A DNA stretch of 64,000 bases from Thermoprotei archaeon. Its GTDB lineage: Archaea; Thermoproteota; Thermoprotei; Thermoproteales; B15-G16. Of the stretch, positions 1,689-56,540 are shown piece by piece (position 1 is the first letter of the stretch; every line of letters starts with the position of its first letter). The DNA lies in NCBI GenBank assembly GCA_003649205.1, contig QMRC01000007.1:1-64000 (forward strand), read 5' to 3'. The notes beneath the pieces were generated by a model. The model searched no databases, had not been told where the DNA came from, and was given only the letters and a program-made list of their open reading frames with translations. Both the position numbers and the translations under genes were made by a program.

Positions 1689-1782
1689 GTACTCACCACG
1701 GTAAAGCTTACTGAGGTAGGTTATATTCCCTACTCACAGGAAAAATGTAGTAATACTCCTTGCTAGGTACTTATAATGTAGC

Positions 1783-6374: not shown

Positions 6375-6577
6375 TACTTACTGAGAACCTCCTGAATCAT
6401 CTCCTCAACTCTCTTTCTCACACCCTCTAAACCCTTCTCACGATACAGTAGGTAGAACTCCTTAGCAAGAGAAGCTACCTCACCTCTATCTTTAAACTCC
6501 TCATCAAGTACCTCAAGGACTAACCTAAGTAACGTAGTACTTCGCTCACGTCTACCCTTCTTAACCACTTTCACCAC
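6374..6577 (-). CDS. Arcadin-3-like small helical protein
   Basis: This 67-residue protein is basic at the N terminus (MVKVVKKGRRER) and helical throughout. Its stop overlaps the arcadin-4 ATG (TAATG), and its start overlaps the end of arcadin-2 by 17 bases, so translation is probably coupled. Size and position between arcadin-2 and arcadin-4 match arcadin-3 of the known arcade operon. The assignment rests on synteny, since the sequence is too short to recognise alone. Confidence 0.65.
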   Translation of the reverse strand: MVKVVKKGRRERSTTLLRLVLEVLDEEFKDRGEVASLAKEFYLLYREKGLEGVRKRVEEMIQEVLSK

Positions 6578-7340
6578 CTTCCTTCGACCTCTTCCTCAAA
6601 ACCTCAACCCATGGATGATCTTTAAGGTACTCCTCCCAAAAGGTAGCACCTGAAGGTACTTCCTGAGAGACCTCAGCTGCTACCTCAACACCAGCTGCAG
6701 TCGGAGCTGTGGGTACATAGCTAGATAACTCTCTCCTAATCCTACTCAATTCCCTCTCAAGAATATCGGTAACCATTCTCCTAACATCATCTGGATGTAG
6801 TAGTGACCTCTCAATAGCCGAGATAGTACGTCTAAGCTCACTAACCTCCTTCATCAAGTTCTCAAGCCTATACTCAATATTTGCAATTCTCTCCTCAAGC
6901 TCCTCTAACCTCCTGAGATCAACAGCCGCAACCTTAGGTCTAGTAATAGGTTTTGCAGGGACTAACTCCTCTACACTACCCTTATCAAGATCGTAAACCA
7001 GTAAACCAATACCTAACTCCTTGATCAACCTACCATCTACAAGAAACCTATAGGTTATGGGTATAGCTACATAGATCTTATCTACGAAATCCCTCAACTT
7101 AGCAACACACTTCGTAGCTATTTCCCTACTAATTTCATCTCTTGAAACTCCTCTAGTCACTACGTAAATAGCAACCTTGTTCTTACCCTCCAAAAACACT
7201 AGGGTATTAGACCTCACATCAGAGAGAAGTTCAGGATTTTGGGAAATAAACTCATTAATGTCGAGAGGAACTAGGTTACGCTCTTCCCTAACCCACTTAC
7301 TAATTACGTACTTAGCCCACTCTAGCTCAGTCAATGACAT
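6561..7340 (-). CDS. Arcadin-2-like crenactin partner
   Basis: This 259-residue protein has a mixed alpha/beta N-terminal domain (about 1-130), a coiled coil (about 135-205), a low-complexity Ala/Val/Pro linker and a short amphipathic tail with the motif DHPWVEVL (241-248). In Pyrobaculum, arcadin-2 uses a C-terminal helix to bind crenactin and control filament assembly, so the conserved tail probably does the same here. The gene starts 16 bases after the crenactin stop. The same tail motif appears in the zinc-finger protein at 56025-56522. Confidence 0.75.
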   Translation of the reverse strand: MSLTELEWAKYVISKWVREERNLVPLDINEFISQNPELLSDVRSNTLVFLEGKNKVAIYVVTRGVSRDEISREIATKCVAKLRDFVDKIYVAIPITYRFLVDGRLIKELGIGLLVYDLDKGSVEELVPAKPITRPKVAAVDLRRLEELEERIANIEYRLENLMKEVSELRRTISAIERSLLHPDDVRRMVTDILERELSRIRRELSSYVPTAPTAAGVEVAAEVSQEVPSGATFWEEYLKDHPWVEVLRKRSKEGGESG

Positions 7341-7356
7341 CGACTACATACACCAA

Positions 7357-8655
7357 CTACTTCCAACTATACCAACCCTCAAGTCTAGACCAATCCCACT
7401 TGTAATCACCTGGTAGTGCAAATCCATACACAATACATCCTCTCCAAACACTGTACTGTGGATCCTTGACCAGTGATATACTGACCTTACCCCTCATCTC
7501 AGGTAACTTCTCAGAGATCATAAGCTCTATTTTCGTTGCTGAGTCACAAGCTACATCACGTAGGTTAGGTGGTACACTCCACATGAATGCTCCACCACTG
7601 AGAATTATTCTCTCGAAGAGCCTTGACCTAATCTCAACAGGACAAACTCTAATAGCCTCAATTATCGCTGATGCTAGGTCTAATGTACCATATAGCTTCT
7701 GATCACCGATGACTATGTCCTCTATAACTAGTCTACCCTGTGATATGTAGCTCATGAACTCTTCATGACTTGGATTAAACACTATCTCACCAATGAGAAA
7801 CCTCATCCACGAATTATCACCAAGATCTATCTCAGTAACTGGATCTATCTTGACCTTAGCTCTAAACCTTTCCTTCTCCTCCTTAGCCTTCTTAATAGCC
7901 TCCTTTAAGTTCTTAGGGACTAAACCGATTTCACGCTTTACCTTCTCAACAACATACTCTTCACGAGCTAAATCACCATAACCACAATCCTTCAGTATCT
8001 CCCTAGTTATGGCATTTGCCTCAGCACCACCTCTATTTAGTGCCACAATAGCTTTCCTAATTGGGTAGTACGAGATTGGGCATATCTGTATGTTACCGTG
8101 ACCGCACTCAACAACAAGACATGTCAAGGCTTTCTCAGCTATAGCTACCGCTAGTGGCTGAGGTATTATGGTCATTGCCTTAATTAGCCTGTTGTCAAAC
8201 TCGCTATCTAGCTCCTTATGTAGTTCAAACAGCTTCTCGTACATGTACTTAGGTGCTAATGCTGAGAGAGCTGCAACAACGTAGTATCCTTTGAAGTTCG
8301 GATCTCTTGAAGCTACTGGGTAGAACTCCTCAAAGCCATACCTCGTAACTGCCTTAATTACCTTCCAAGCATCTTCGTCATCTATCTTAACTATTCCATC
8401 CCTCATAGGGTACACTAGGTTCTTAACTAAGTCCTCTCTAGAACCTAGGAACTTCGGTATCTCCTCATCACCAACAATAACGTCTCTCTCTATCTTGAAT
8501 ATCTCGTGAATAGCTGTCTTCTCCCTAATGAGGAGACCTCTGTTCTGTATCATTCTTGGATTCTCACCTATGGTTATTGGACCGTACTTGAAGTAACCTG
8601 TACCATAGTCCTCCGCATATACGTACTTCTTCCTATACTGAAGCTCAGCACCCAC
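7357..8655 (-). CDS. Crenactin, archaeal actin homologue
   Basis: This 432-residue actin-fold ATPase should polymerise into cytoskeletal filaments in the cytoplasm. Visible actin motifs are phosphate 1 (EDYGTGYFKYG, residues 15-25), phosphate 2 (VVECGHGNIQ, 181-190) and the adenosine motif (ILSGGAFMW, 350-359). The insert-rich region 225-290, with a charged helix, is typical of crenactins rather than MreB. It lies upstream of arcadin-2, -3 and -4 and 51 bases downstream of the PCNA gene on the same strand. Arcadin-1, which sits beside crenactin in Pyrobaculum, is not evident here. Confidence 0.92.
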   Translation of the reverse strand: MGAELQYRKKYVYAEDYGTGYFKYGPITIGENPRMIQNRGLLIREKTAIHEIFKIERDVIVGDEEIPKFLGSREDLVKNLVYPMRDGIVKIDDEDAWKVIKAVTRYGFEEFYPVASRDPNFKGYYVVAALSALAPKYMYEKLFELHKELDSEFDNRLIKAMTIIPQPLAVAIAEKALTCLVVECGHGNIQICPISYYPIRKAIVALNRGGAEANAITREILKDCGYGDLAREEYVVEKVKREIGLVPKNLKEAIKKAKEEKERFRAKVKIDPVTEIDLGDNSWMRFLIGEIVFNPSHEEFMSYISQGRLVIEDIVIGDQKLYGTLDLASAIIEAIRVCPVEIRSRLFERIILSGGAFMWSVPPNLRDVACDSATKIELMISEKLPEMRGKVSISLVKDPQYSVWRGCIVYGFALPGDYKWDWSRLEGWYSWK

Positions 8656-16550: not shown

Positions 16551-16791
16551 ATTACAGGTATAGTCAATTCACGTGAGACAAAGCACTCCTATACACAAAA
16601 TCATCAAAAGTTAAACACATACCAGTTCCCTACCTGAAATCAGTATTAATCTAATTTCCTTCATACACTCGACAAGACTATAGTTGTTTATGTCTCTCAC
16701 ATCGAAGTACTTACCCTGAAGTACACCGTATACGTAGGTCATTGTGGTTACGAATAAGTAGGGTTTCCTAGTCGCTGTAGTGGGGATAGGC

Positions 16792-17274
16792 ATGGTAGGT
16801 ATTATGGAAGCTATCCTGTACTACATAGCACATAGATGTTGGAATGTAGGGTATAGGCCCATCAATACACTGGTGTTGAAGCCTATTGCTGTACGTGATT
16901 TCACTGAGAGAGTACTCGGTACCTCAGTTGGCGTAGATGAGGTGGTGAAGGCACTAACAGAGCTAGGAGTGAATACTGTTGATCCGAAGACAGGTACTGT
17001 AGTGAGGAATGAACATGTGATTAAGCTACTTAAATCGCTGGACTTCAAGATACCTTGTCCTTGGTGTAGTGAGAAGTTTAGCGAGGTGAAGGACCTTGTT
17101 AAGCACGTGGCGTCTGCACACAGTACGCAGATAGTTGTCGAAGGTAACTCATGTAAAGTCTGCAGTAGGAAATTCCGCGGCATCAATGAAGTATGTCAGC
17201 ACTACCTGAAAAAGCACCTCAATGTAAATTCCATAGCTGAAGCCATTAAGGCAATAGCACCAAGTATCACGTAG
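16792..17274 (+). CDS. Two-finger C2H2 zinc protein
   Basis: This 160-residue protein (ATG 16792; GTG 16780 and ATG 16804 are alternatives) has a winged-helix-like N-terminal region and two C2H2 fingers at the C terminus: CPWCSEKF...H....H from residue 89 and CKVCSRKF...H....H about 28 residues later. It is probably a nucleic-acid binding or protein-contact module. The stop codon directly abuts the antisense box C/D sRNA at 17275. Confidence 0.75.
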   Translation: MVGIMEAILYYIAHRCWNVGYRPINTLVLKPIAVRDFTERVLGTSVGVDEVVKALTELGVNTVDPKTGTVVRNEHVIKLLKSLDFKIPCPWCSEKFSEVKDLVKHVASAHSTQIVVEGNSCKVCSRKFRGINEVCQHYLKKHLNVNSIAEAIKAIAPSIT

Positions 17275-44433: not shown

Positions 44434-45873
44434 GTGATTTCAGACTTTAATCCAATGAACTTGGTAAGAAGCTTAGGGTATGTAATGAGCACTGACCTCT
44501 TCTTCGATCTCTTCGTCAAGGAGGTTGAGGAGAAGCTCACTAATGGGAATTCAGGTACTGAATTCACTATGAAGCCGAAGATACCTACCATTCTCTTCAA
44601 CGAGATCAAGAAGCTATGGGTAAGCGAACTCCCCAAGAGAACAACTAACTGCTCCATAGTAGCTGTTGATGGTGGTATAAGGTCACTAGGTCTAGAAGGT
44701 GGTAGAGAGGTAGTTATAACGAGGGCTATAGCAGTAACTAGTTCAGGTGCTAGAGCAAGACAATTAAGAGTTGAGTTAAGTAAGCTACAGGGTTTTGCTC
44801 TAAAGCTCTCACTACTTACGCAGGTAGAGTGCTCTGTTGCTCTTGAAGCTCTAGAGAAGGTACCTAATGTGGATTACTTACTTCTCGATGGTTCACTATA
44901 CTATAGAGTAGTCCATGCACTTCACAGAATTCTTAGACCTAGGGAGATAGCAGATACTTACTACCTACCTGAGCTAATCATGACCGTGACCTACGTAGCT
45001 ACCTTACTCAAGCGATGTCGCGAGCTCAACGTAGTGCCGCTATTCATAACGAAGGACTCATCATCACGAATGTTGAAGGACTACGTAATCAGCAACATAA
45101 TCTACGAGCAGCTGTACGAGAACAAGCTCCTTACAGACCTAGAGGACATCACCACGGAACTACTTTTAAAAGCACGAAACCTGTACTCAGTTACCTGGGT
45201 AAAACACTACAGAGCAAATCTCGAAAAACTTCAACAACACCTAAGAGCGGCACCTACGAATGTAGCGGAAGAACTTATACACTGTATTGAGCTATGGCTT
45301 CAACCGCACATCACAGACGTAGACTTAATTCGCTCAACAGTAACCACTATAGGTTTCTCAAGACCGCTCAACATAGGTCTCATAGATATCCACTTAGATA
45401 ACTTACTACAGGTACTTGAGAGGAGTAAGAAGAGAGTACTTGACAGGATCAGTGATGCACTCAAGATGAGAATCAATGAGGTACTAGGTAATGAGAGTTA
45501 CTGGTACACCCTACTGATGAATGCTCTCAAGACAATACCAACTCTCTACATGACGTACATACGTGTGACACCAGACGATACACCACTAGCAATTGAGATA
45601 CCTAACTTCAGATCCAGTATGGGATTCGTAGAGTTCCGAAGTAGGAGATTAAGTAGTGAACTCGAGATACTAGATCCACTTAGTATAGTTGTCAGTGGTT
45701 ACAGGAATTCAACAGTCTACAATGTATGGCTCTACTTAGCACATCAGTACGCAACCTTCAGATCAACTCAGTTCAGAAGCTACGTAAAGTACCTCGAAGC
45801 ACATCTCTCAAAGTATGGTCTTATCCTTCGAAAGAAGAGAAGAGAGAAGATGGTGGTGGCTCCTCTTGAGTGA
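44434..45873 (+). CDS. nurA: NurA nuclease
   Basis: This 479-residue nuclease carries the NurA core: IVAVDGGIRSLGLEGG (catalytic Asp), YLLLDGSLYYR, PLFITKDSSSRML and FSRPLNIGLIDIHLDNLL. NurA resects DNA ends with HerA, Mre11 and Rad50. GTG 44434 is used; ATG 44455 is an alternative. Its stop overlaps the probable HerA start (TTG 45866). Family length is about 330-480 residues. Confidence 0.9.
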   Translation: MISDFNPMNLVRSLGYVMSTDLFFDLFVKEVEEKLTNGNSGTEFTMKPKIPTILFNEIKKLWVSELPKRTTNCSIVAVDGGIRSLGLEGGREVVITRAIAVTSSGARARQLRVELSKLQGFALKLSLLTQVECSVALEALEKVPNVDYLLLDGSLYYRVVHALHRILRPREIADTYYLPELIMTVTYVATLLKRCRELNVVPLFITKDSSSRMLKDYVISNIIYEQLYENKLLTDLEDITTELLLKARNLYSVTWVKHYRANLEKLQQHLRAAPTNVAEELIHCIELWLQPHITDVDLIRSTVTTIGFSRPLNIGLIDIHLDNLLQVLERSKKRVLDRISDALKMRINEVLGNESYWYTLLMNALKTIPTLYMTYIRVTPDDTPLAIEIPNFRSSMGFVEFRSRRLSSELEILDPLSIVVSGYRNSTVYNVWLYLAHQYATFRSTQFRSYVKYLEAHLSKYGLILRKKRREKMVVAPLE

Positions 45874-47899
45874 GGAGGTTGGTTATGTAGTTGGTGAGGT
45901 CACTCCCCTAGAATTTACCTTCGCTGTAAACCCCAAGACACCAGTACCTCTCTACGAGTATGTGTACTGTGAGCTAGAGGATGTACCACCTGGTGAGACC
46001 AAGCTCCATAGAGTAAAGGTCATAGCACAGGTACATGAGGTGTATCGTGTTGGTGTTGGTCTTGGCAAGAATGTACCCTATGATGTGGCTAAGAACTTAG
46101 CAGCTAGCGGTGTTGAGGTTGAGGAGATTCACCTAGCTAAGGCTAGGGTACTTGGGTATGTGTGGAGAGGTAGATTGGTAACTCCGAGGAGACCACCGAG
46201 AGCGAATACTAAGGTCTTTAGAGCACCAACTGAGCTAGTTAAGGAGCTTTACAGCGTTCCAGAGGATAGAGCACTTCACATAGGGTACCTTGTTGCTAGA
46301 CCTGAAGTACCTGTCTACCTAGATGTTGAGGGCTTGAAGAGGCACTTAGCGATAATAGCAGCTACAGGTAGTGGGAAGACTTGGTGCGCAGTGTTATTGA
46401 TTGAAGAGCTGTTGAAGAAGGGTGCCACGATAGTTGTCATAGATCCTCATGGTGAGTACGTTAAGTTGAAGGAGAAGGTTCACGTCCTAGATCCCAGACT
46501 TAGGGATAGAGTTCTTGTACTTAAAGCTTCACGAACGCAGGAAGGTGATAAGCTCTATAGAATAAAGCTCCTTCAACTAGATTCAGAAACTCTCTCAAGT
46601 ATAGCGGGTATACCACAGAATGCTCACAAGATAAGACACTGTGTGAGAGCAGCATTCAACATAGTTAAGGCAATTGCTAAGTACGTGAATAGGCCTGAGC
46701 TAGTTAACATAGGTAACTTGTTGAAGGTGCTTAGTTTCTGGAGGAGAGAACGAAATGTATCAAAGTCGAGGAAGTCAGGTAACCTATCTCCTGAACCTAT
46801 AGTTAGGAAGATGCTTCAGGAATTATTTAATCTAGGTAATTCAGATAGTGAGTTAGTTAGGAAGCTCAGTAAGTACATTGAGGATCTGTACGCAGCAACG
46901 TACCGTGATGTATCACCTTGTCTTGATGCTATCAGGTACCTAAGGTCACTTAAGAGGTATGGGGTCTACACCTCAACAACTACACCACTACACGAAATTC
47001 TTCAACCAGCTCACGTAACGATACTGAACCTCAGTGGTGTTAAGGAGGAAATACAGGACCACATCGTCTACAATGTCCTAACCAGGATATTCAATGCTAG
47101 AGTCAGGTACGTCAGAGACCTACCTGGTGAAAGGTATGAGTACCCTGTTGTCGTCTTCATTGAGGAAGCACATAGATTCGCACCACCTAAACACCGTAGT
47201 AGAAGAACTTGGAGTCAAGAGATAATCACGAGGATTGCTTCTGAAGGTAGGAAGTTCGGTGTCTACTTAGTGGTCATAACTCAGAGACCATCGAAGATAG
47301 ACTCAGATGTGCTGTCTCAATGTCAGAATCAGATCGTCCTCAAGATAGTTAATCCGAAAGATCAAGAAGCTATTAAGGATGCTAGTGAAGTGCTCTCACA
47401 GGACTTACTCATGAACTTACCTAGCCTCAACACCGGTGAAGCTATTGTTGTTGGTCCATTAACTAAAGCACCCGTAATAGTCAGGTTGAGGGATCGTATA
47501 TTACCCTACGGTGGTTCAGATATCGTGGTTAGTGAGGTATGGAGTAGAGCATTGACCTCAGTACTTCCAGATACCTCAAGTGAAGTACATGTACTTAGGA
47601 AGCTAGGTATCAACGTTGATCAAGGTACATTGAGGAAGGTAATGCCCTACCTACCGTATGTCACGTACGAGATTGATCCACTAACATTGACTATCCTCGG
47701 TAAGGTAAGTCTTGGACGTGAAGCGTATGTCGAGTATAGACTCGGTGAAGGTACATGGTACTGTTCAGCATGTAGACATAGCATTCAACCATGTGTACAC
47801 GTACTAGCACTCCTGCTAAAAGTTATAGCTTCTAAGGATATAAAATTACTTGAGAGAGAAGTGGTGCAGAACAATGGTAACGATAGCACACCTAGCTGA
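45866..47899 (+). CDS. herA: HerA helicase with a SWIM-like C-terminal tail
   Basis: This 677-residue FtsK-like hexameric translocase has Walker A AATGSGKTW (about 164-172), DPHGEYVKL, Walker B VVVFIEEAHRF (about 427) and arginine-finger region ITQRPSKIDSDVLSQCQNQ. After the usual core, a C-terminal extension holds WYCSACRHSIQPCVHVLAL, with C633, C636, C643, H645 and Ala648, a SWIM-like C-H-x-x-A signature rarely noted in HerA. TTG 45866 overlaps the nurA stop; GTG 45815 would create a 59-base overlap. It works with NurA, Mre11 and Rad50. Confidence 0.85.
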   Translation: MSEEVGYVVGEVTPLEFTFAVNPKTPVPLYEYVYCELEDVPPGETKLHRVKVIAQVHEVYRVGVGLGKNVPYDVAKNLAASGVEVEEIHLAKARVLGYVWRGRLVTPRRPPRANTKVFRAPTELVKELYSVPEDRALHIGYLVARPEVPVYLDVEGLKRHLAIIAATGSGKTWCAVLLIEELLKKGATIVVIDPHGEYVKLKEKVHVLDPRLRDRVLVLKASRTQEGDKLYRIKLLQLDSETLSSIAGIPQNAHKIRHCVRAAFNIVKAIAKYVNRPELVNIGNLLKVLSFWRRERNVSKSRKSGNLSPEPIVRKMLQELFNLGNSDSELVRKLSKYIEDLYAATYRDVSPCLDAIRYLRSLKRYGVYTSTTTPLHEILQPAHVTILNLSGVKEEIQDHIVYNVLTRIFNARVRYVRDLPGERYEYPVVVFIEEAHRFAPPKHRSRRTWSQEIITRIASEGRKFGVYLVVITQRPSKIDSDVLSQCQNQIVLKIVNPKDQEAIKDASEVLSQDLLMNLPSLNTGEAIVVGPLTKAPVIVRLRDRILPYGGSDIVVSEVWSRALTSVLPDTSSEVHVLRKLGINVDQGTLRKVMPYLPYVTYEIDPLTLTILGKVSLGREAYVEYRLGEGTWYCSACRHSIQPCVHVLALLLKVIASKDIKLLEREVVQNNGNDSTPS

Positions 47900-49202
47900 T
47901 GCGCATCTAGGCTTTAGACAGTATGGGCTACCTGAAAGAGCTAGTGACTTCGCTAAATCATTCCACAGGGCAGTCGATGAGATAGTGGAGAGGAGAGCTG
48001 ACATAGACCTAGTACTGATAGTTGGTGATCTATTCCACAGCAAGAGACCTAGTCCAGAGACAATTCGTGAAGCTGTTATTGGTCTTAAGAAGCTCAGAGA
48101 AGCGAATATACCGGTCATAGTGACAAGAGGCAATCACGACGCGCCATACTCGCAAGGCAGCAACAATGTGTTGACTCTCCTCTCTGAGCTAGGTTTAGTC
48201 AAGTACATAGATTATGGAAGAGTAGAGATTAGTGGGATCGAAATCATAGCATGTGGTTGTACACCAACAGCGTATACAAGAGCACTAGAGAACTACTTGA
48301 GACAAGTAGTTAGCTTAGAGAAGGGACAACGTATCCTCCTACTTCACCAGGTTATTGAGGGTATAGAGCAAAATTACCCAAATGACCCGTATGTAGTACC
48401 ATTAGATGTAGTTAAGGAATTTGCTACGAAATTCAACTACATAGCTCTAGGTCATGTACATACCTTCGCACTGAAGCACCCTCAATTACCTGCATACTAC
48501 TCCGGATCACTAGATATCTGGGATATCTCTGAATTCGAGACATACATCATGAAGTCTAGCAAGACCTTAGTTAAGGAACGTGACATGAGTGAGAAGGGTT
48601 TCCTCATAGTTCATGTAGATGGTGGAATTGAGGTAGAGAGAGTAAGACTTAGACCTAGTAGGAGGATGATTAGAGCAGTTCTCGCTTACAGTAATGAGGT
48701 GAAGCCTAGTGAAGTAATGAGGGATCTTATATCGGTAGCTCACGAGCTAGATAGGGAAGATGCTGTTGTTGTGATCGAGTTGCTAGGTAATCTAGTACCT
48801 GGTTCGAGTAGGCATGAGCTAAATTTGAAGGAGGTGAGGAAGTACTTTAGAAGAGTTCTCAAACTCGATATCAGGAATAGGCTGGGTGTAGTTACGTCGA
48901 CTACAGATGGTAAAGTAGTAGACATATCGTCACTGAGTTTAGAGTCGCTTCTCAGGAGTTCATTCCTGAAATACTTCAGCAACGTAGCTAAGTCAATTGC
49001 TCTAGATCCTCAGTTCCTAAGTGAGTTAGCTATGAAATTGCTCGATCTCCTAGCTCAAGGTAAGACTAGAGAAGCCCTCTACGTATTGTATAGAGAGTTG
49101 GGTGTTGATACAGGTACTGTATCGATTCCGAGTATCAGTACCTCTACTTCAGCTCCCTCTAGAAGGGGTAGGGAATCCACGATATTAGATTGGTTGAGGT
49201 GA
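47874..49202 (+). CDS. mre11: Mre11 nuclease
   Basis: This 442-residue phosphoesterase has AHLADAHLGF, LIVGDLFHSK, VIVTRGNHDAP, LLLHQVIEG and IALGHVHTF, the five metal motifs of Mre11. It pairs with Rad50 to open and trim DNA breaks. ATG 47874 overlaps the end of herA by 26 bases. The C-terminal part contains the Rad50-binding helices and a Ser/Thr-rich tail. Confidence 0.95.
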   Translation: MVTIAHLADAHLGFRQYGLPERASDFAKSFHRAVDEIVERRADIDLVLIVGDLFHSKRPSPETIREAVIGLKKLREANIPVIVTRGNHDAPYSQGSNNVLTLLSELGLVKYIDYGRVEISGIEIIACGCTPTAYTRALENYLRQVVSLEKGQRILLLHQVIEGIEQNYPNDPYVVPLDVVKEFATKFNYIALGHVHTFALKHPQLPAYYSGSLDIWDISEFETYIMKSSKTLVKERDMSEKGFLIVHVDGGIEVERVRLRPSRRMIRAVLAYSNEVKPSEVMRDLISVAHELDREDAVVVIELLGNLVPGSSRHELNLKEVRKYFRRVLKLDIRNRLGVVTSTTDGKVVDISSLSLESLLRSSFLKYFSNVAKSIALDPQFLSELAMKLLDLLAQGKTREALYVLYRELGVDTGTVSIPSISTSTSAPSRRGRESTILDWLR

Positions 49203-49212
49203 GGGACTTACC

Positions 49213-51633
49213 TTGATCATTAGGTTAGAGGTAGAGAACTGGAGGTCCTACATAAGGGCCAGTGCTACGTTTACTGAAGGAATAACGTTTGTACATGGTG
49301 TTAATGGTGCTGGTAAGACATCTCTCCTAGAAGCTATAGCATATGCTCTCTACGGTTCTAGGTGGTTAAGGTTAGCGAGGAGGGAAGGTGAGGAGAGGTT
49401 AAGTGATCTCCAGAGGAGGGGTTCCAGTATTACTAAGGTTAGGTTGTGGTTTAGAGCACCTAGTGGTGAGGTGTATGTTGTTCAGAGGTGTATCGTGGGT
49501 GGTAGATCTCAACGAGATAGTACGTACCTAATGGATTCTAGAGGTAGGAGATTAGCTATTGGTGATGAGGAGGTTACTGAAGCTATTGAGAGGATAACTG
49601 GTATATCCTGTAGGGCGTTTAGGGAACTCCTCTACGTTAGGCAGGGTGAGCTGAAGGATATTCTAAAGGAGAGACGGAGAGAGAAGCTGGATGAGCTACT
49701 TAGGATCAAGGATCTGGAGAAGGCTAAGGACTCTATGAGGGATGTTATCTCGAAGCTAGATACAGCACTTAGGTTAACGATCCAGGAACTAAGTCAGGTA
49801 GAGCACCTCATTCGTGAGTACGAGAATAGGGTTCTAGATATCTCTAAGAAGATGGATGGGTTAGTTAAGTTGATTGAGGAGTATAGGACTAGAGTTAGTT
49901 CCATTGAGAGTAGACTTGAGGAGATGAAGAAACGTGAGGAGGAGTTGAGGAGTTATCGTGAGAGGATTCAGAATCTAAGACTCGAGGTAGCTAACTTAAG
50001 GACTGTTAGGGAGAGGTACATTTCTGAGATAAGGGTTCTAGAGGGTGAGCTTCAACGGGTTAAGGAGTTAAGGGATGAAGTTGAGAGGTTAGCTCGAGAA
50101 TTGCAGAGAGCATCTGAACTTGAGCAGAGATTACGTAGCTTGAGAGAACAGGAGAAGCAATTGCTCAATCTCCTCGGTGAGTACACGTACCTACTCAACC
50201 AAGTTAAGGAGTATGAAAAGCTGCTTAGTGAGGTCAATAGGCTTAGAGATGAGTATGAGAAGTGCAGTCAGGAGCTTAGATTGCTAGAGAGTGAGAGGAG
50301 TAAGCTACTTCAACAACTCTCATTAATTAGGAAGTTTGAGGAGGAGTATAGTGAACTACTTAAGCGTAGAGCTCAGCTAGAGCAGGAACTGAGTATTCTA
50401 CGTAATTTTGTAGATAATTTGGAGGGATCTAGGGTAGCTACGTGCCCTCTCTGTGAAAGAGAGATTAGTAGTGAGTACAGGGAATTGATTCTAAAGAGAA
50501 AGAGGAAGAGAATTGAGGAGTTGAAGAATACTCTAACTGACTTATCTAAGCGTATTCAGGAGATTGAGCAGTCACTTAAGCAACGAGATGAGCTTCTCTC
50601 TAGACTACTGAATGTCGAGCAGTGTATAGCTAGTGCTCGATCTAGGTTGCAGGAACTGGAGAGTAAGCTACGTGAGCTAAGTGATCTACAGAAGCAGGTA
50701 CAGAGTATGTATGAGAAGATTAAGACTCTTGAGGGTAAGTTAAGTGAGTTAGAGAGAATTCGAGATGACATAACTCAGCTAGAGCGTGAAGCTGGTAGAG
50801 TACAGGAACTGAGAGAGAGATTGAGTTCTTTAATGCAGGAGCTATCTAGGGAGCGTGTACTCGAGCAGAAAATAGCGGAGCTAAGGGAGAGGGTAAGTGA
50901 GGTTACGGAACTAATTGAGTGTAAAGAACGTGAGGTTAAGTCTCTACTCACTAAATTCAATGAGGAGGAGTACACTAACTTACAGAGTAGTATTCAGCAT
51001 CTTGAGGAGGAGCTTGTGAGGTCTAAATCAGAGCTAAGTAGGCTAGAGGGTGAACTAAAGTCCTACCATGAACAACTATCCGAAGCCAAGAGGAAGTTAA
51101 GTGAACTCGAGAAGAGACGAGAAGAGTTAATCAGGAAGAGGCAGAACCTCGAGCGGGTACTCGCAGTAGCCTCTCTGATAAGGAGGTCGTACGACGAGAT
51201 CAAGCCAATGCTTAGGTCATTGGTCATCGAAGCAATAAACATGGAAGCAGAGAACCTGTTCAATCAACTTAAACACAAGAAAAACTATGAGAGTATCGAG
51301 ATATCACCTGATTACGAGGTGTATATACGTGATAGATCAGGTGCTAAGTACCTTATCGACTACTGTTCTGAAGGTGAGAAGACACTCATAGCACTGGTCC
51401 TCAGATATGCACTAGCAAAGGTACTCATAGGTGAAACACCCATATTAATTCTTGACGAACCAACAGAACACCTAGATAGAGAGCATAGAGCAAGACTCAT
51501 CAGGTGGTTAAGCACCTGTGAGTGGGCTAGACAACTAATAGTGACATCTCACATAGATGAGTTCAGTCAAGTAGCAAACAACGTAGTGGAGGTAAGAGTA
51601 AGAGAAGACGGCGTATCAGAGGTAATTCAGTGA
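49213..51633 (+). CDS. rad50: Rad50 ATPase
   Basis: This 806-residue protein has Walker A GVNGAGKTS (29-37), long coiled-coil arms around the zinc hook CPLC at 411-414, the signature YCSEGEKTLIALVLRYALA and Walker B ILILDEPTEHLD. It bridges DNA ends with Mre11. The TTG at 49213 is preceded by GGTGAGGG and follows the mre11 stop after 10 bases. It is distinct from the arcadin-4 Rad50-like protein. Confidence 0.94.
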   Translation: MIIRLEVENWRSYIRASATFTEGITFVHGVNGAGKTSLLEAIAYALYGSRWLRLARREGEERLSDLQRRGSSITKVRLWFRAPSGEVYVVQRCIVGGRSQRDSTYLMDSRGRRLAIGDEEVTEAIERITGISCRAFRELLYVRQGELKDILKERRREKLDELLRIKDLEKAKDSMRDVISKLDTALRLTIQELSQVEHLIREYENRVLDISKKMDGLVKLIEEYRTRVSSIESRLEEMKKREEELRSYRERIQNLRLEVANLRTVRERYISEIRVLEGELQRVKELRDEVERLARELQRASELEQRLRSLREQEKQLLNLLGEYTYLLNQVKEYEKLLSEVNRLRDEYEKCSQELRLLESERSKLLQQLSLIRKFEEEYSELLKRRAQLEQELSILRNFVDNLEGSRVATCPLCEREISSEYRELILKRKRKRIEELKNTLTDLSKRIQEIEQSLKQRDELLSRLLNVEQCIASARSRLQELESKLRELSDLQKQVQSMYEKIKTLEGKLSELERIRDDITQLEREAGRVQELRERLSSLMQELSRERVLEQKIAELRERVSEVTELIECKEREVKSLLTKFNEEEYTNLQSSIQHLEEELVRSKSELSRLEGELKSYHEQLSEAKRKLSELEKRREELIRKRQNLERVLAVASLIRRSYDEIKPMLRSLVIEAINMEAENLFNQLKHKKNYESIEISPDYEVYIRDRSGAKYLIDYCSEGEKTLIALVLRYALAKVLIGETPILILDEPTEHLDREHRARLIRWLSTCEWARQLIVTSHIDEFSQVANNVVEVRVREDGVSEVIQ

Positions 51634-51657: not shown

Positions 51658-51671
51658 GTGCAATTCTGCAC
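51658..51671. promoter_or_regulatory. Short inverted repeat after rad50
   Basis: GTGCA-ATTC-TGCAC lies between the rad50 stop and the start of the membrane protein. It could be an operator or attenuator for the downstream half of the operon. An AT-rich CAATAAAG sits just before it. Confidence 0.3.
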
Positions 51672-51735
51672 ATTGAAAGAGCAACAACTCAACAGGTTAA
51701 GTACCTCTACTCCAACTCCTTCTCCGGGAACACTC

Positions 51736-52455
51736 ATGGGTAAGGTAGTGGTTATTAAGGAGAAGAGCGAGAGCATACCATCGATATTCTTGAAGTCAGT
51801 AGTGGGTGTAGTCTGCTTCGTACTATTACTCACGATATCACCAGTGCTAGCAATGCTATCTCTCGGCTCAGCCGCTACCTTCATAGCTTTGAAAAAGATA
51901 GTAGGTAGAAAGAGGAAAAGAGAAGATACAGTACCTGAAGACGAAGATACAGAAGCGCTGAAACTCAACACAAAGAGGAGTAGGGCATTTCACTCAGTAA
52001 TCAGGCTGAAGCCAGTGAACTTAAGTAAGCTACATAGACTAGACATGAAGGTGACACTCCTCGTACTTGATCCCAAAGCAAACTACATACTGGTACCTAG
52101 AGGACTAGAGTTAACCTGTATAGCACTCATGAAAGTACAGACACAGCAACCGCTTGACAGGGATACTATAGCGAAGATCTGCCTCAGTACAGATTGTGAA
52201 GTCGAGCCCTCCGAAGTAGTAACACTAGATCACGTAGGTAATAGCAAGATACCGCTCACACACTACGTACTGGTAGTTAGGTCTAGGAAGGTAACACCAG
52301 TAGTGACATCAAACACCGTAGCTGAGTTAATTAGCAGAGTTAGTCTCGCAATCTCAACACTAACCTCAACAATCATGAGTAGAGACCCCCAAGCAGTGAT
52401 CGAAGTTCTACCAGCTAGTAGAGTTATTGAGGAACAGCTACTGATGAGGTGGTGA
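51736..52455 (+). CDS. Membrane protein of unknown function, pair with a HerA-like protein
   Basis: This 239-residue protein (ATG 51736; GTG 51658 is possible) has one or two membrane segments at the N terminus (IFLKSVVGVVCFVLLLTISP, then LAMLSLGSAATFIAL), a basic stretch KIVGRKRKRED, and a soluble C-terminal domain with mixed alpha/beta pattern. The next gene starts one base after its stop (TGACATG), so they are surely made together. No homologue was recognised. Confidence 0.7.
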   Translation: MGKVVVIKEKSESIPSIFLKSVVGVVCFVLLLTISPVLAMLSLGSAATFIALKKIVGRKRKREDTVPEDEDTEALKLNTKRSRAFHSVIRLKPVNLSKLHRLDMKVTLLVLDPKANYILVPRGLELTCIALMKVQTQQPLDRDTIAKICLSTDCEVEPSEVVTLDHVGNSKIPLTHYVLVVRSRKVTPVVTSNTVAELISRVSLAISTLTSTIMSRDPQAVIEVLPASRVIEEQLLMRW

Positions 52456-52456
52456 C

Positions 52457-53785
52457 ATGAGGATCACCATAGGTTACGAAATTCAGGGTAACGTAGCAGT
52501 ACGTGAAGCAATGCTAGATCTTAGAGGTGGAGACGTAATCGGTATCTTCGGTAAGTGTGGTAGTACTACAGTCAAGCAGTTAATCACATCACTTAGTGAT
52601 CTGTCAGAGGAAATAACCTCCACAGTGATTCTAGATAGTGAAGGTACTCTCCGAAACCTCAAAGCACTAAACGAGTACAGGTACACAGTTCTTGGATGGA
52701 ATGCATCACTACCTCTAATAGAAGTAATTCCCCCAGGAAAAGACCTCTCATCTAGACTCCTCATGGTAACTGACATCATTGCAGCAGCACTGAATCTCAG
52801 CGATATCGAGGCACACATACTTCACAACGCACTCATGAAGTACCTAACAAGCAGTAGTCACGAGCTAGATAACCTAATGAAAGCTCTCTCGGAAGAGTAC
52901 ATGAAGTTAAGTCCTGTAGAGAGAACGAGAGCATACAACATACTCTCACTAATGAGGGACCTAAAGTACGGTAGACTAGGAGCTACTTTCTCTGAACTAC
53001 ACCACACAGTAAATTTAGAAGAGAGTATGCTCTACGTAGATACAGCACTAATACCTCCAAGCTACAGACCTCTCATACTATCACTCCTGATGTACTACCT
53101 GTATAGTAGAGGTGCTAGGGGTAAGATCATAGTGATACTGAACTTCGGCACTTACCTAAGTGATGTATCGATGAGATCAAAGAGCTTCAGTACCCTACTC
53201 ACTACGTTACTGATAAACAACGTGACGGTAATACATTCAAACTCAATACTAGAGCTCCCTACGTACTTAAGAGAATACATCACATACATAATCCAGCACA
53301 GGGTAAACACAAGTACTGAAGCAAGAGCTCTAGCAGATTTCTACAAGCTACCTGAAGAAACATTAACGAAGTTGAGAGATCACGAAGCATACCTAGTCGG
53401 TAGAGGTCTATGCCTCAAGATTGCGCTATGGCATGACATAGTTGAGGAGTTACCTACCTCTAGGTTACCCAGAGAATTACTTACACCCCGTGAACCAGCA
53501 GCCCAACCACTGATAAGGGAGGTATTCGGTGATAGAGCAGAGCTAGTGTACGAGGTACTGAACTACCTAAGGAGAGGTGCAGTTACTAGAGATGAGCTAC
53601 TCTCCTTCCTAACTGAAGGTATGGGTCTCGATACCACATCAGCGGCCAAGCTAATCAATGAGCTATGTGTTCACGGTCTTGTAGAGGACTTCATTGCGAG
53701 AGATGGTAGGTACTGGATTAGGCTCTCCATTAGGGGTCTTGTCTCTGTTGATGAGTATGAGGAGTGGAGAGCAAGAGAGACGTAG
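52457..53785 (+). CDS. Probable HerA/FtsK-like protein lacking a P-loop
   Basis: This 442-residue protein follows the HerA layout: an N-terminal beta strand, the segment GIFGKCGSTTVKQLI (29-43) where a P-loop would be, but with GS-TTV in place of GSGKT, and KIIVILNFGTYL where Walker B would be, without acidic residues. A winged-helix region follows (about 350-430, RRGAVTRDELLSFLTEGMG). It is therefore probably an inactive ATPase that binds DNA or a partner. It is encoded one base after a membrane-protein gene and before radA. Confidence 0.65.
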   Translation: MRITIGYEIQGNVAVREAMLDLRGGDVIGIFGKCGSTTVKQLITSLSDLSEEITSTVILDSEGTLRNLKALNEYRYTVLGWNASLPLIEVIPPGKDLSSRLLMVTDIIAAALNLSDIEAHILHNALMKYLTSSSHELDNLMKALSEEYMKLSPVERTRAYNILSLMRDLKYGRLGATFSELHHTVNLEESMLYVDTALIPPSYRPLILSLLMYYLYSRGARGKIIVILNFGTYLSDVSMRSKSFSTLLTTLLINNVTVIHSNSILELPTYLREYITYIIQHRVNTSTEARALADFYKLPEETLTKLRDHEAYLVGRGLCLKIALWHDIVEELPTSRLPRELLTPREPAAQPLIREVFGDRAELVYEVLNYLRRGAVTRDELLSFLTEGMGLDTTSAAKLINELCVHGLVEDFIARDGRYWIRLSIRGLVSVDEYEEWRARET

Positions 53786-53799
53786 TGGAGGTGATTTTG

Positions 53800-54219
53800 A
53801 TGAATATTAGATGGGACTCTAGTGGACTAGGATTTACATGGACTATAGGTATTGTAGGTACAGGTATCCTACGTGGTAGGGTAAGGAGGGTCAGTACTAG
53901 GAATGGCGTACGAATAGTGCGGTCAGTGTACCTTGTACCAAAGAGGTCGTTAAGAGATGATGCTGGTGAGGAATTACTTACAGAGTGGTATGAACCGCAG
54001 GAATTCAGTAAGCTAGTCGACGCAGAACTCAAGTTGCTCTCCATAGTGCTTGAAGAAAGAAGTAGATCAGGCGACCCTGTTCAGGAGATTAAGCTCGCAC
54101 TTGCTGACTTGGAGAAGCTCCTCAATCAAGTTGCCCTCCTTAAAGCTAGATTGGAGAAGTTATTGGAGGTGGTGAGTTATGGGAGGAAGGAGGAGAACTC
54201 AAACCACAACTCAAACTAG
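53800..54219 (+). CDS. Coiled-coil protein upstream of radA
   Basis: This 139-residue protein (ATG 53800, preceded by GGAGGTGAT) has a beta-rich N-terminal part (GLGFTWTIGIVGTGILRGRV) and a C-terminal coiled coil (IKLALADLEKLLNQVALLKA and beyond). It overlaps radA by 41 bases, so the two are translationally linked. No family was recognised; a RadA accessory role is inference. Confidence 0.65.
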   Translation: MNIRWDSSGLGFTWTIGIVGTGILRGRVRRVSTRNGVRIVRSVYLVPKRSLRDDAGEELLTEWYEPQEFSKLVDAELKLLSIVLEERSRSGDPVQEIKLALADLEKLLNQVALLKARLEKLLEVVSYGRKEENSNHNSN

Positions 54220-55222
54220 CTCACAGGTTCAGCAGGTAAGTGAACAGAGATCTGGAGTACAGGAGCTTAAGGTAGTCAGGATACCAATCGAGGAGTTACC
54301 TAACACGACGAGAGCTACCATAGAGAAGTTGAAGAGTGCAGGTATCTACAGCGTTCAGCATCTCTCAATGTTTACGGTAGATGAGCTAGTTATGTACGAT
54401 GTGACGCCGGAGACAGCAGCTAGGTTACTGAGAAAAGCAAGAGCACTACTCAAGAGTGAACCACGAGTATTCTCACTCAAGGAGTTCTCAAACTACAAGA
54501 GTTCACTACCTAGAGTGAGGATTCACGTAAATGCTATAGACAACATGTTGGGAGGAGGTCTAGAACCTAGAGCTATCTACGAATTTGCTGGTGAATTCGG
54601 TGCTGGCAAGACACAGCTTTGTCATCAACTAGCTGTCACAGTTCAACTAAGCTACGATAGAGGTGGCGTAGCAGGAGCGGCGCTGTACATAGATACTGAA
54701 GGTACCTTTACACCCTCTAGAATAAAGTCAATAGCAGAGAGATTTGGGCTAGATCTCGACTACGTATTCTCAAACATCTACGTAACACAACCGAAGACTG
54801 TTGACGATTTACTTGAGTGTATTAGGACAGATGTCGTTAGGTACGTAGAGGACCACAACGTCAAGCTAATAATAGTTGACTCATTAATAGGTCTCTTCAG
54901 AGCTGAGTACCCTGGAAGGGAGAATCTAGCTCTAAGACAGCAGAGACTGAACTACGCTCTAGACTGGCTCTCGAGAGTAGCCAAGACCTACAACATCTTC
55001 GTAGTGATCACGAATCAGGTAATGGATGTACCAATGGGATTTGGTTCACAGAAACCAGCTGGTGGAAACATCATGGCACATGGTGCAACACATAGATTCC
55101 TACTATACAAAGTCGGTAGGGAATCAGGTCTAAGAGCAATGGAAGTGCTTGACTCACCAGCACTACCTGAGGGACTTACTGTCAAGTTCAGAATAACTGA
55201 AAGAGGGTTAGAGGATGTCTAG
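54179..55222 (+). CDS. radA: RadA recombinase
   Basis: This 347-residue recombinase has an N-terminal helix-hairpin-helix domain (TRATIEKLKSAGIYSVQHL), Walker A GEFGAGKTQ (138-146), the DTEGTFTPSRI segment, Walker B LIIVDSLIGLFRAEYPGR and the ITNQVMDVPMG loop. It forms filaments on single-stranded DNA for strand exchange. ATG 54179 lies inside the preceding gene. The extended N-terminal tail (QTTTQTSSQ) is disordered. The SWIM protein starts eight bases before its stop. Confidence 0.95.
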   Translation: MGGRRRTQTTTQTSSQVQQVSEQRSGVQELKVVRIPIEELPNTTRATIEKLKSAGIYSVQHLSMFTVDELVMYDVTPETAARLLRKARALLKSEPRVFSLKEFSNYKSSLPRVRIHVNAIDNMLGGGLEPRAIYEFAGEFGAGKTQLCHQLAVTVQLSYDRGGVAGAALYIDTEGTFTPSRIKSIAERFGLDLDYVFSNIYVTQPKTVDDLLECIRTDVVRYVEDHNVKLIIVDSLIGLFRAEYPGRENLALRQQRLNYALDWLSRVAKTYNIFVVITNQVMDVPMGFGSQKPAGGNIMAHGATHRFLLYKVGRESGLRAMEVLDSPALPEGLTVKFRITERGLEDV

Positions 55223-55556
55223 AGTAGACATACCACCAAAGATACTGCAGAAGTTCAGAGAGATGTTTCCGAATAAGAGTACATCGTGGATAAGGAGGTG
55301 CATAGCGAGATTACCAGATGTCGTTGAGGGTAAGGTAAGAGGTGTCTGGTTTGTTCGTGGTAATGCTAAGCTTGGTGATGCGTATTCACAGTACATAGTG
55401 AAGTACATTGCTGGTAAGTACATGTGTAGCTGTATGGAGAGAGAAAGACCGTACCACAGTAGGAGAAGAAAGGAGCTGTGCACACATGTTGGTGCGGTAA
55501 TCCTGTATAGGTTACTGAAGGGTGAGACTATATGCGAGACAGAGGTCTCATCCTGA
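55215..55556 (+). CDS. SWIM-domain protein, Sws1/Shu2-like
   Basis: This 113-residue protein has C71-x-C73, a basic loop, then C89-x-H91-x-x-A94 (CTHVGA), the extended SWIM signature C-x-C...C-x-H-x-x-A of Sws1 and Shu2. These proteins work with Rad51 in eukaryotes, and archaeal SWIM proteins occur near RadA. It overlaps radA by eight bases and the next gene by 25 bases. Its N-terminal region has a short basic helix. Confidence 0.82.
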   Translation: MSRVDIPPKILQKFREMFPNKSTSWIRRCIARLPDVVEGKVRGVWFVRGNAKLGDAYSQYIVKYIAGKYMCSCMERERPYHSRRRKELCTHVGAVILYRLLKGETICETEVSS

Positions 55557-56023
55557 TCTACGGTAATCCAAAGAGGATACTGAAGAAGCTAGTAACAGCA
55601 CTACAGAGAGAATCTGCACTACTGTTAACCGATAGCGAGAACTATGCAGCAGTACCATATGAGGAAAGCGATCTCAAGATAGCTATTGTCGATGTATTAG
55701 AGCATGTACCTGAGGTACTGAGTAAGGAAGCTAGAAAGGTAAACGTAGTGTGCACACCATCAATACTCAGCAAGGTTGTTAGAGAGTTCTACAGCTACGT
55801 AAGGAGTTCACCTAGTGGAAGTTACCTAGGAATATACTACGTCAAGCTACTTAGAGAGGTTCTCGAAAGAATTCGAGCAATAACGTACTCGAGAAGGTTA
55901 CTCACAATTGTCGTAGCACCTTCACGAATAAATCCAGTAACAGGTCAGGAGTACCCTGTACTACATTGGTTAGTTCAGAGGTACTTCGATGAGGTACTTC
56001 ATGAACAACACGTGATGGTGTGA
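55532..56023 (+). CDS. Small protein, possible degenerate RecA-fold partner
   Basis: This 163-residue protein starts with a beta strand and LILIYGNPKRILKKLVTAL, where an intact P-loop would be GPPGSGKT-like, then LLLTDSENYAAV and IAIVDVL strands. This resembles a RecA fold that has lost nucleotide binding, as in Psy3 and Csm2 of the yeast Shu complex. The assignment is inference. It overlaps the SWIM gene by 25 bases and is translated with it. Confidence 0.5.
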   Translation: MRDRGLILIYGNPKRILKKLVTALQRESALLLTDSENYAAVPYEESDLKIAIVDVLEHVPEVLSKEARKVNVVCTPSILSKVVREFYSYVRSSPSGSYLGIYYVKLLREVLERIRAITYSRRLLTIVVAPSRINPVTGQEYPVLHWLVQRYFDEVLHEQHVMV

Positions 56024-56024
56024 G

Positions 56025-56522
56025 GTGATTGATCTGTCTAAGGCGGGGAAGAACAACACAGTCGACATATACATATGTCCAATATGTGGTAAGACTTTCA
56101 GCAAGGAAAGCAGTTTAGCGCATCACATAACTAGAGCACATGGAACATACAAGCTAATTGTTGATGCAGGTAAATTCATCACTAGATTAGAGAAGGTTGA
56201 GAGAACACTCGCTAGAGTAGAGAGAGCAGTATCTCAACTACTTGAGCAAATTAAAACCCTAAATGGTAAGCTTGAGGAAGTCTCAACATCGATATCCGAG
56301 CTACAGAAGCAATTACAGGAGGTACCTCAGATAACGGTCATGGCTCCTAAAGTAACACTTGTAACTCAAGAAGCTAAGGCACTGAAGACCGAATTAGCTA
56401 CATCAATCAAGAGACTTGACCTACATAGCGCAGACACCATAGAGATACCAGACTACATCCTGGACAATCCATGGTTAAAAGTTCTCCAGCAAAAACCAAG
56501 AGAAGGCAACTTAAATTCCTAA
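56025..56522 (+). CDS. C2H2 zinc-finger coiled-coil protein with an arcadin-2-like tail
   Basis: This 165-residue protein (GTG 56025) has one C2H2 finger (C18, C21, H34, H39), a coiled coil (about 50-105), a linker and the C-terminal motif DNPWLKVL (147-154). The tail matches DHPWVEVL of the arcadin-2-like protein, as does its distance from the coiled coil. It is the last gene of the repair operon, converging with feoB after 18 bases. Confidence 0.72.
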   Translation: MIDLSKAGKNNTVDIYICPICGKTFSKESSLAHHITRAHGTYKLIVDAGKFITRLEKVERTLARVERAVSQLLEQIKTLNGKLEEVSTSISELQKQLQEVPQITVMAPKVTLVTQEAKALKTELATSIKRLDLHSADTIEIPDYILDNPWLKVLQQKPREGNLNS

Positions 56523-56540
56523 ATTTTGAACAATATCTCT

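What the first reader, a model, noticed from the sequence alone, without database searches (positions are those of the whole stretch)
56025..56522. Repair-operon protein shares the arcadin-2 tail
The zinc-finger coiled-coil protein ends in DNPWLKVL, and the arcadin-2-like protein in DHPWVEVL, each after a coiled coil and followed by a basic KEG/REG end. Arcadin-2 binds crenactin through its C terminus. The tail suggests that this protein also docks on crenactin, linking recombination repair (it closes a NurA-HerA-Mre11-Rad50-RadA operon) to the cytoskeleton.
Basis: partly seen in the sequence, partly recalled or inferred. Interest (0 to 1): 0.85.

Follow-up and report, generated by a model that had tools for sequence, protein, structure and literature searches.

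The report
Archaeal zinc-finger adaptor for crenactin
A zinc-finger, coiled-coil protein at the end of a DNA-repair-type gene row in an archaeon of Pyrobaculum's order ends in the same kind of short tail with which arcadin-2 grips the actin-like protein crenactin, and dozens of other proteins, many with DNA-binding-type domains and mostly from crenactin-bearing archaea, end in it too, so such proteins are predicted to tie DNA to an archaeal actin.

Summary
The protein at 56025-56522 (C2H2 finger, long helix, linker) ends IPDYILDNPWLKVL. A matrix from 27 distinct arcadin-2 tails of other genomes ranks it first of 204 window ORFs (33.3 bits; own arcadin-2 19.3; third 1.5); 0 of 200,000 random or shuffled tails reach it. 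The five other full-length family members found among 5.8 billion proteins keep the tail. It shares the core of the co-crystallised Pyrobaculum calidifontis peptide 187-203.

New: the tail ends many other proteins with HTH, ribbon-helix-helix, C2H2 or AbrB-like starts, up to five bearers per genome, five here; 9 of 49 tail loci hold a RadA paralogue within a few genes; one operon type ends in a tail protein with either a C2H2 or an AbrB-like domain. Tails track crenactin across the phylum.

Corrections: the RadA is a paralogue; NurA-HerA-Mre11-Rad50 are absent from the one orthologous locus with readable flank.

Best reading: a ParR-like adaptor, DNA or repair machinery at one end, crenactin's groove at the other. 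Docking and DNA binding are inferred.

The parts
56025..56522 (+). C2H2 zinc-finger / coiled-coil / arcadin-2-type-tail protein, 165 aa, GTG start
   Evidence: (PF00096 E 1.7e-6, 28.6 bits, above cut-off 25.2)
56070..56141 (+). C2H2 zinc finger, residues 16-39
   Evidence: C18 C21 H34 H39 invariant in the seven aligned rows
56142..56321 (+). long helix, predicted coiled coil, residues 40-99
   Evidence: AlphaFold model, block pLDDT 84-98; sub-threshold hits to coiled-coil families
56445..56486 (+). arcadin-2-type tail IPDYILDNPWLKVL, residues 141-154
   Evidence: matrix score 33.3 bits, rank 1 of 204 ORFs; P142 N148 P149 W150 V153 L154 invariant
7357..8655 (-). crenactin, 432 aa, predicted partner of the tail
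   Evidence: 4cj7 E 2.1e-150; 57% identical over 412 aa to the L147 (P. calidifontis) crenactin
6561..7340 (-). arcadin-2 (Rkd2), 259 aa
   Evidence: NF053561 E 6.8e-11, below curated cut-off
6597..6638 (-). arcadin-2 tail WEEYLKDHPWVEVL
   Evidence: 19.3 bits, rank 2
3867..6374 (-). arcadin-4 (Rkd4), Rad50/SMC-like
   Evidence: NF053563 E 4.2e-138, 461.6 bits, below curated cut-off 860
54179..55222 (+). RadA paralogue, 347 aa
   Evidence: apart from the one-per-genome RadA in the tree
55215..55556 (+). SWIM-like protein, 113 aa (CxC...CxH motif; label recalled)
   Evidence: relatives in L089 and L090 (E 5.1e-26, 1.3e-16); no Pfam family at E 0.1
55532..56023 (+). 163-aa protein, operon member, fold unknown
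   Evidence: AlphaFold model unusable, pLDDT 40
53764..54219 (+). 151-aa operon protein
   Evidence: relatives in L089 and L090; profile match to the L098/L102 counterparts E 1.6e-9, probability 96
52457..53785 (+). CedD/HerA-like protein, 442 aa, P-loop looks degenerate by eye
   Evidence: NF053655 CedD E 0.0049, far below cut-off; BLAST to L090, L098, L102; profile to HerA 4d2i E 0.0043
51658..52455 (+). 265-aa protein with a hydrophobic hairpin (membrane protein, by eye)
   Evidence: weak: hhalign probability 44
44434..51633 (+). NurA, HerA, Mre11 and Rad50 genes upstream in the same row
   Evidence: Pfam hits; gaps -59 to 24 nt

Best explanation
The window's zinc-finger coiled-coil protein carries an arcadin-2-type tail at its C terminus and most likely works as an adaptor: the tail is predicted to dock in the hydrophobic groove of crenactin while the zinc finger would hold DNA (or a partner on DNA) and the helix would bring several tails together. 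Shown by calls: the tail, its conservation in the other full-length family members, its core shared with the co-crystallised arcadin-2 peptide, its presence at the end of many other proteins with DNA-binding-type N-termini, mostly in crenactin-bearing genomes, and the recurrent neighbourhood with RadA paralogues. From the literature (passages): that peptide binds the crenactin groove at nanomolar affinity, competes with the D-loop and depolymerises filaments, and ParR of bacterial plasmids uses the same groove of ParM. Inferred: docking of this tail, DNA binding by the finger, multimerisation by the helix, and the outcome. A cluster of such proteins on DNA would either cap or recruit crenactin at the filament end that exposes the groove (ParR-like), or hold monomers ready there. 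In this operon the DNA would be the substrate of the RadA paralogue, so crenactin would position or move recombining or imported DNA.
For: Tail statistics. Conservation: (finger cysteines and histidines and the tail are invariant; the middle diverges). Crystal link: the L147 crenactin equals residues 4-432 of 4cj7, the sequence also in 5ly3; residues 187-203 of the 203-aa gene behind it read RGGIGENEWVKILRSKR; PMC5173319 (passages) gives binding, Kd 31 nM, a tryptophan contact, depolymerisation and the ParR comparison. Portability: 106 pattern places in 101 genomes against 8 for the reversed pattern; of 60 places fetched, 52 carry the tail 14-23 codons before a stop (one is an arcadin-2, four are cut or under 45 codons). 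Of 36 bearers aligned (of 47 at hand), N-P-W and the start M are the invariant columns; 16 match HTH_23, 6 zf-C2H2_4. RHH_1 E 4e-9 in the own-genome C16 bearer. RadA-paralogue neighbours: 9 of 49 tail loci, within three genes, plus the window, and L221 and L227 found when reading around RadA paralogues. Same operon type, different DNA-binding domain: window/L089/L090 against L098/L102. Co-occurrence: strict motif in 82 of 107 crenactin genomes against 5 of 193 without.
Against: No binding was measured or modelled; the tail helix has low model confidence. A single C2H2 finger may bind protein or RNA rather than DNA. Five of 26 crenactin-negative genomes in the relatives set hold a C-terminal tail outside arcadin-2 (G043, G065, G070, G079, and G069 in a frame cut by the contig edge; 54-90% complete); G070 is the only held genome of its family. 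Pyrobaculum-type genomes, where crenactin was studied, carry the tail almost only on arcadin-2 as far as two patterns show. The RadA closest to the window's (G003, L216) has no tail gene within 9.5 kb. The RadAs of L098 and L102 fall on the other side of the tree from the window's, so the two operon types may have come together separately. No direct repeats near the window gene. The co-occurrence test is not corrected for kinship and is dominated by arcadin-2 itself.
Confidence: 0.65

Rival explanations
1. Monomer-sensing regulators: the tail binds free crenactin monomers, so that crenactin controls where or whether these DNA-binding-type proteins act, as G-actin controls MRTF through RPEL motifs (recalled). 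No tether to filaments.
For: Most assigned bearers have domains common in transcription regulators (HTH, RHH); arcadin-2 forms a 1:1 complex with crenactin and dissolves filaments (PMC5173319, passages).
Against: Tail genes recur near RadA paralogues (9 of 49 loci) and, in three loci, near ParB_N genes, which fits DNA handling better than general regulation; the zinc-finger gene closes its operon and is not set apart as a regulator.
Confidence: 0.2
2. The tail binds another conserved partner and arcadin-2 merely shares it; crenactin is only one of several clients of the motif.
For: Five incomplete crenactin-negative genomes keep tails.
Against: Of 15 crenactin-negative relatives at least 95% complete, none has a C-terminal tail by the pattern (two hits: G050, 98 codons before the stop, and G092, 31 codons before the stop in an unrelated context); the motif has the core N-x-W-x-x-[VI]-L of the crystallised crenactin ligand.
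Confidence: 0.1
3. Chance or simple compositional resemblance of two C-termini.
For: Short motif; found by eye first.
Against: 0 of 200,000, twice; five of five other full-length members; 106 places against 8 for the reversed pattern.
Confidence: 0.01

Closest known systems
Arcadin-2 (Rkd2, NF053561; peptide of PDB 5LY3)
   Same: C-terminal peptide with the N-x-W-x-x-[VI]-L core, behind a linker
   Different: The zinc-finger protein has no NF053561 hit, a C2H2 finger instead of the arcadin-2 N-terminus, and is not beside crenactin
ParR of ParMRC plasmid partition systems
   Same: DNA-binding-type N-terminus plus a C-terminal tail predicted for the actin groove; one bearer in this genome is ribbon-helix-helix
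   Different: C2H2 finger here, long helix between, gene 47 kb from the actin gene, no repeat array beside it
AlpA adapter of the prophage actin AlpC (Corynebacterium; search listing only)
   Same: DNA-bound adaptor that talks to an actin-like protein
   Different: Bacterial; its sequence was not compared here
WH2 / thymosin beta4 motifs of eukaryotic actin binders
   Same: Short portable peptide for the same actin groove (PMC5173319, passages)
   Different: The authors see no sequence likeness to arcadin-2, and thymosin runs the other way in the groove

Membership tests
Arcadin-2 (Rkd2) | Match to the full-length family model NF053561 | tested here: not met
   No hit at E 0.01 for the zinc-finger protein; hit E 6.8e-11 for 6561-7340
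Arcadin-2 (Rkd2) | C-terminal tail of the arcadin-2 sequence type | tested here: met
   33.3 bits with the arcadin-2 tail matrix; sequence level only
Arcadin-2 (Rkd2) | Tail binds crenactin | not testable with these tools
   No binding assay or two-chain prediction
Arcadin-2 (Rkd2) | Gene next to crenactin | tested here: not met
   About 47 kb away in the window
ParR | Ribbon-helix-helix DNA-binding domain | tested here: not met
   C2H2 finger instead
ParR | Centromere-like repeats beside the gene | tested here: not met
   No direct repeats of 12 nt or more at 55100-57000
ParR | C-terminal tail in the groove of the cognate actin | not testable with these tools
   Inferred from arcadin-2 only
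C2H2 zinc finger (PF00096) | Score above the curated cut-off | tested here: met
   28.6 bits against 25.2
Crenactin (7357-8655) | Homology to solved crenactin over the full length | tested here: met
   4cj7, query residues 6-428, E 2.1e-150
RadA (one-per-genome recombinase) for 54179-55222 | Groups with the one-per-genome RadA | tested here: not met
   Other side of a 100/100 branch; above the cut-off of NF003301 (299.1 of 259) but below TIGR02236 (277.7 of 361.15)
Shu-type (SWIM plus Rad51 paralogue) complex | SWIM domain and a degenerate Rad51 paralogue | tested here: inconclusive
   CxC...CxH motif by eye, no Pfam hit; model of the 163-aa protein unusable

The most novel reading that the evidence does not exclude
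Crenactin is a DNA-handling actin: a whole set of ParR-like adaptors, each with its own DNA-binding domain and one shared groove-binding tail, couples chromosomal loci, recombination modules built on RadA paralogues and perhaps DNA-import machinery to crenactin in Thermoproteota. The ribbon-helix-helix member of this genome, with a three-copy 12-bp repeat array upstream and like arrays at three other places, would be its ParR with parC-like sites.
Probability: 0.42. Interest if true: 0.95.

Novelty: new variant of a known kind. Interest (0 to 1): 0.87.

Why it matters
What crenactin does in the cell is unsettled (experiments called inconclusive in PMC10936438, passages). A shared, portable tail of the groove-binding type on DNA-binding-type proteins gives crenactin a set of named candidate partners and one concrete role, DNA positioning, segregation or recombination, that a peptide-binding assay can test. 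It would also give archaeal actin the kind of adaptor toolkit known for ParM and for eukaryotic actin.

Tried and rejected
Shu-complex reading of the SWIM-like gene plus the 163-aa gene: an alignment of three sequences gave a model with pLDDT 40; claim dropped, and no fold search was run on either model. Repeats at the window gene: none. Housekeeping-repair reading ('closes a NurA-HerA-Mre11-Rad50-RadA operon'): the RadA is a paralogue, and L089 has other genes upstream. Pyrobaculum-type genomes: a second pattern for the ENEW/ENQW tail in 45 genomes of the order gave 20 places, 12 of them in arcadin-2 genes, one in a short extra frame of G012 (L171), the rest internal or spurious. Membrane proteins of the two operon types: weak match only. 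Eight of 60 fetched pattern places (L086, L109, L132, L133, L142-L145) were internal or spurious and were dropped before the bearers were described; two further places (G039:C17, G041:C8) were not fetched. The matrix used 33 of the roughly 50 arcadin-2 loci at hand and only tails that fit a loose expression (31 did). Paper searches for an earlier report listed none on tail-bearing DNA-binding proteins; the library is open-access only, and I saw listings, passages of three papers (PMC5173319, PMC9723716, PMC10936438) and one abstract (PMC11868833), no whole paper.

Full report
1. The observation. The ORF at 56025-56522 (+) encodes 165 aa with one C2H2 finger (PF00096, E 1.7e-6, above its cut-off), a long helix (residues 40-99, block pLDDT 84-98), a low-confidence linker and the end IPDYILDNPWLKVLQQKPREGNLNS. 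Arcadin-2 (6561-7340 -) ends WEEYLKDHPWVEVLRKRSKEGGESG. DxPW occurs nowhere else in six frames of the 64 kb. Crenactin (7357-8655 -) is 57% identical over 412 aa to that of Pyrobaculum calidifontis. Arcadin-4 (3867-6374 -) and PCNA (8707-9594 -) flank the pair.

2. More than chance. From 33 arcadin-2 loci of other genomes (of roughly 50 at hand) 31 tails fitted a loose expression, 27 distinct 14-mers; the window was left out. The matrix was scored over the last 40 residues of all 204 window ORFs of at least 60 codons. The zinc-finger tail is first (33.3 bits), arcadin-2 second (19.3), the next 1.5; 0 of 200,000 random and 0 of 200,000 shuffled tails reach 33.3 (best 16.9 and 19.9). The zinc-finger tail is thus a better arcadin-2-type tail than that of the local arcadin-2.

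3. Link to a solved complex. In the eLife 2016 paper (PMC5173319; passages) the last 17 residues of P. calidifontis arcadin-2 (187-203) sit in the hydrophobic groove of crenactin (5LY3), the complex has Kd 31 nM, a tryptophan and other hydrophobic residues are held responsible, the peptide occupies the D-loop site and dissolves filaments, and ParR binds the groove of ParM. One fetched genome (G004, L147) encodes crenactin identical to residues 4-432 of 4cj7, the sequence also in 5ly3; the next gene is 203 aa and its residues 187-203 read RGGIGENEWVKILRSKR. The core N-x-W-x-K-[VI]-L is shared with the window's DNPWLKVL. In Pyrobaculum-type genomes the residue before W is E or Q, elsewhere mostly P.

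4. Orthologues. A profile of three sequences found ten proteins among 5.8 billion: six full-length members of the family (P0001-P0006, P0001 being the window's own), all with the tail; P0007, 119 aa on a 581-base contig, has an unrelated end; the alignments of P0008-P0010 cover 15-50% of the query and they were not read. Invariant positions lie mainly in the finger and the tail. In 81 genomes of the class the family model matches over its full length in three (own, G073, G075); 59 genomes in all have a match in the helix-and-tail part, seven more only in the finger, 66 of 81 together (one of the 59, G016, showed no tail on reading).

5. The tail is a portable module. A degenerate DNA pattern for the tail gave 106 places in 60 of 101 genomes, against 8 for the reversed pattern. 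Sixty places, chosen as not lying in a recognised arcadin-2 gene (except L107), were fetched: in 52 the tail lies 14-23 codons before a stop, in 8 it is spurious. Four of the 52 frames are cut or under 45 codons; L107 is an arcadin-2 with two tails in tandem. Of 47 full-length bearers at hand (window included) 36 were aligned: the invariant columns are the start M and N-P-W. Sixteen match HTH_23, six zf-C2H2_4. Others are ribbon-helix-helix (RHH_1 E 4e-9 for own C16; weaker: MatP_C E 0.0015 for L113, CopG antitoxin E 0.0015 for L093), AbrB/MazE-like (L098, E 0.0065, below cut-off), or unassigned: winged-helix-like by eye with no Pfam hit (L108, L221, L227), L087, L116-L119, L134. Five bearers are known in this genome: arcadin-2, the zinc-finger protein, C12 (HTH; L088), C8 (unassigned; L087) and C16 (RHH; L260). 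The sixth pattern place (C6) is a 34-codon frame and spurious.

6. Tails follow crenactin. Among 300 genomes spread over the phylum crenactin is found in 109; two marginal ones (G283, G325) were set aside as negative. The strict motif is present in 82 of 107 crenactin genomes and 5 of 193 others. Limits: the tool cut its list, so the second number could be up to 9; of the five, G065 is a real C-terminal tail, G050 is internal, G109, G127 and G204 were not read; one hit of G020 in a 21-codon frame was left out of the 82; Fisher 2.5e-44 ignores kinship and is carried largely by arcadin-2. Of the 25 crenactin genomes without the strict motif, 15 are Pyrobaculum-type (f3) and one is G011; where read, their arcadin-2 genes end in ENEW/DNEW/ENQW or, in G011, MKENPW forms. 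For tails outside arcadin-2 in the 101 relatives: 0 of 15 crenactin-negative genomes at least 95% complete, but 5 of 26 crenactin-negative genomes overall, 54-90% complete, one of them in a frame cut by the contig edge. G070 stays unexplained.

7. Neighbourhood. In the window the gene closes a row NurA, HerA, Mre11, Rad50, 265 aa, 442 aa, 151 aa, RadA-like, SWIM-like, 163 aa, zinc finger, with gaps from -59 to 24 nt. L089 and L090 keep this order from the 265-aa position to the zinc finger (the 163-aa gene is missing in L089). BLAST supports the 151-aa, RadA and SWIM-like genes in both and the 442-aa gene in L090; the rest is by position. In L098 and L102 a like front part (membrane-type, CedD-like, 125 aa, RadA paralogue) ends in an AbrB-like tail protein instead: the small proteins match by profile (E 1.6e-9), the CedD-like ones by BLAST (E 5e-8 and 1e-4), the membrane proteins only weakly. 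So a slot keeps the tail and changes the DNA-binding domain; yet the RadAs of L098/L102 lie on the other side of the tree, so this may be two assemblies of one kind rather than one inherited operon. CedD is a paralogue of CedB, needed for DNA import in Saccharolobus (PMC11868833, abstract); NF053655 CedD scores E 2.8e-18 for L098, 2.9e-8 for L102 and 0.0049 for the window protein, all below its cut-off. The P-loops look degenerate by eye.

8. RadA paralogues. With the window RadA as query, 9 of 49 tail-gene loci hold a RadA homologue within three genes of the tail gene; about one would be expected from some 38 RadA-family genes in 20 Mb (my estimate). L221 and L227 were added when reading around RadA paralogues, a biased look. 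In a 31-row tree the window RadA lies in a 15-row set (100/100, midpoint root) with ten of these twelve, apart from the one-per-genome RadA with own C2:211948. Tail linkage is scattered on the tree (7 changes, at least 5 forced, with L221 and L227 not yet labelled). L216 of G003 (a genome with a Vulcanisaeta-type set) has no tail gene nearby. Three loci (L106; L128 and L130 of one genome) also carry ParB_N genes (E 2.6e-10, 3.7e-9, 3.7e-9), and L106 a ParA-like gene (AAA_31 E 1.4e-6).

9. Explanation. The protein is neither an arcadin-2 nor a ParR by membership, but most likely works like the latter: DNA-binding-type domain, helix, C-terminal peptide for the actin groove. Docking and DNA binding are inferred. 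The alternative that free crenactin regulates these proteins is open.

10. Novelty. None of the listings shows a report of crenactin-binding tails outside arcadin-2. The closest kinds (arcadin-2 peptide, ParR) are known, so I call it a new variant of a known kind, of high interest.

Noticed in passing
own genome G000: C16:35896-35929, C15:41690-41735, C13:170-191, C11:3074-3107 (L272, L271, L270, L274): Two to four 12-bp-spaced TGGTGTACCA palindromes (some copies with one or two changes) at four places outside longer ORFs, though short frames of 64 and 102 codons cover two of them and C13 is at a contig start; the C16 array lies about 240 bp upstream of the ribbon-helix-helix tail gene. None in the window. 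The reversed-pattern control at up to two mismatches gave 3 and 3 hits, perhaps the same arrays out of phase. Binder unknown.
   Followed up: partly
L107 (G049), 4976-5722 -: An arcadin-2 with two tails in tandem, 34 residues apart, which might hold two crenactin subunits.
   Followed up: no
L106 (G046), L128 and L130 (G059): Zinc-type tail genes with a RadA paralogue, a small AAA-like ATPase, a 170-177 aa gene and a ParB_N gene nearby; possibly mobile or partition modules.
   Followed up: partly
window 16780-17274: A second protein with two C2H2-like fingers by eye (164 aa), without the tail.
   Followed up: no
window 27-2439 (-): Two coiled-coil proteins (553 and 218 aa) side by side near the arcade cluster; by eye, similar genes follow a RadA in L230 (not compared).
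   Followed up: no
window 52457-53785 and counterparts in L090, L098, L102: CedD/HerA-like protein whose Walker A motif appears lost, next to a RadA paralogue: a possible non-hydrolysing relative of DNA-import ATPases.
   Followed up: partly
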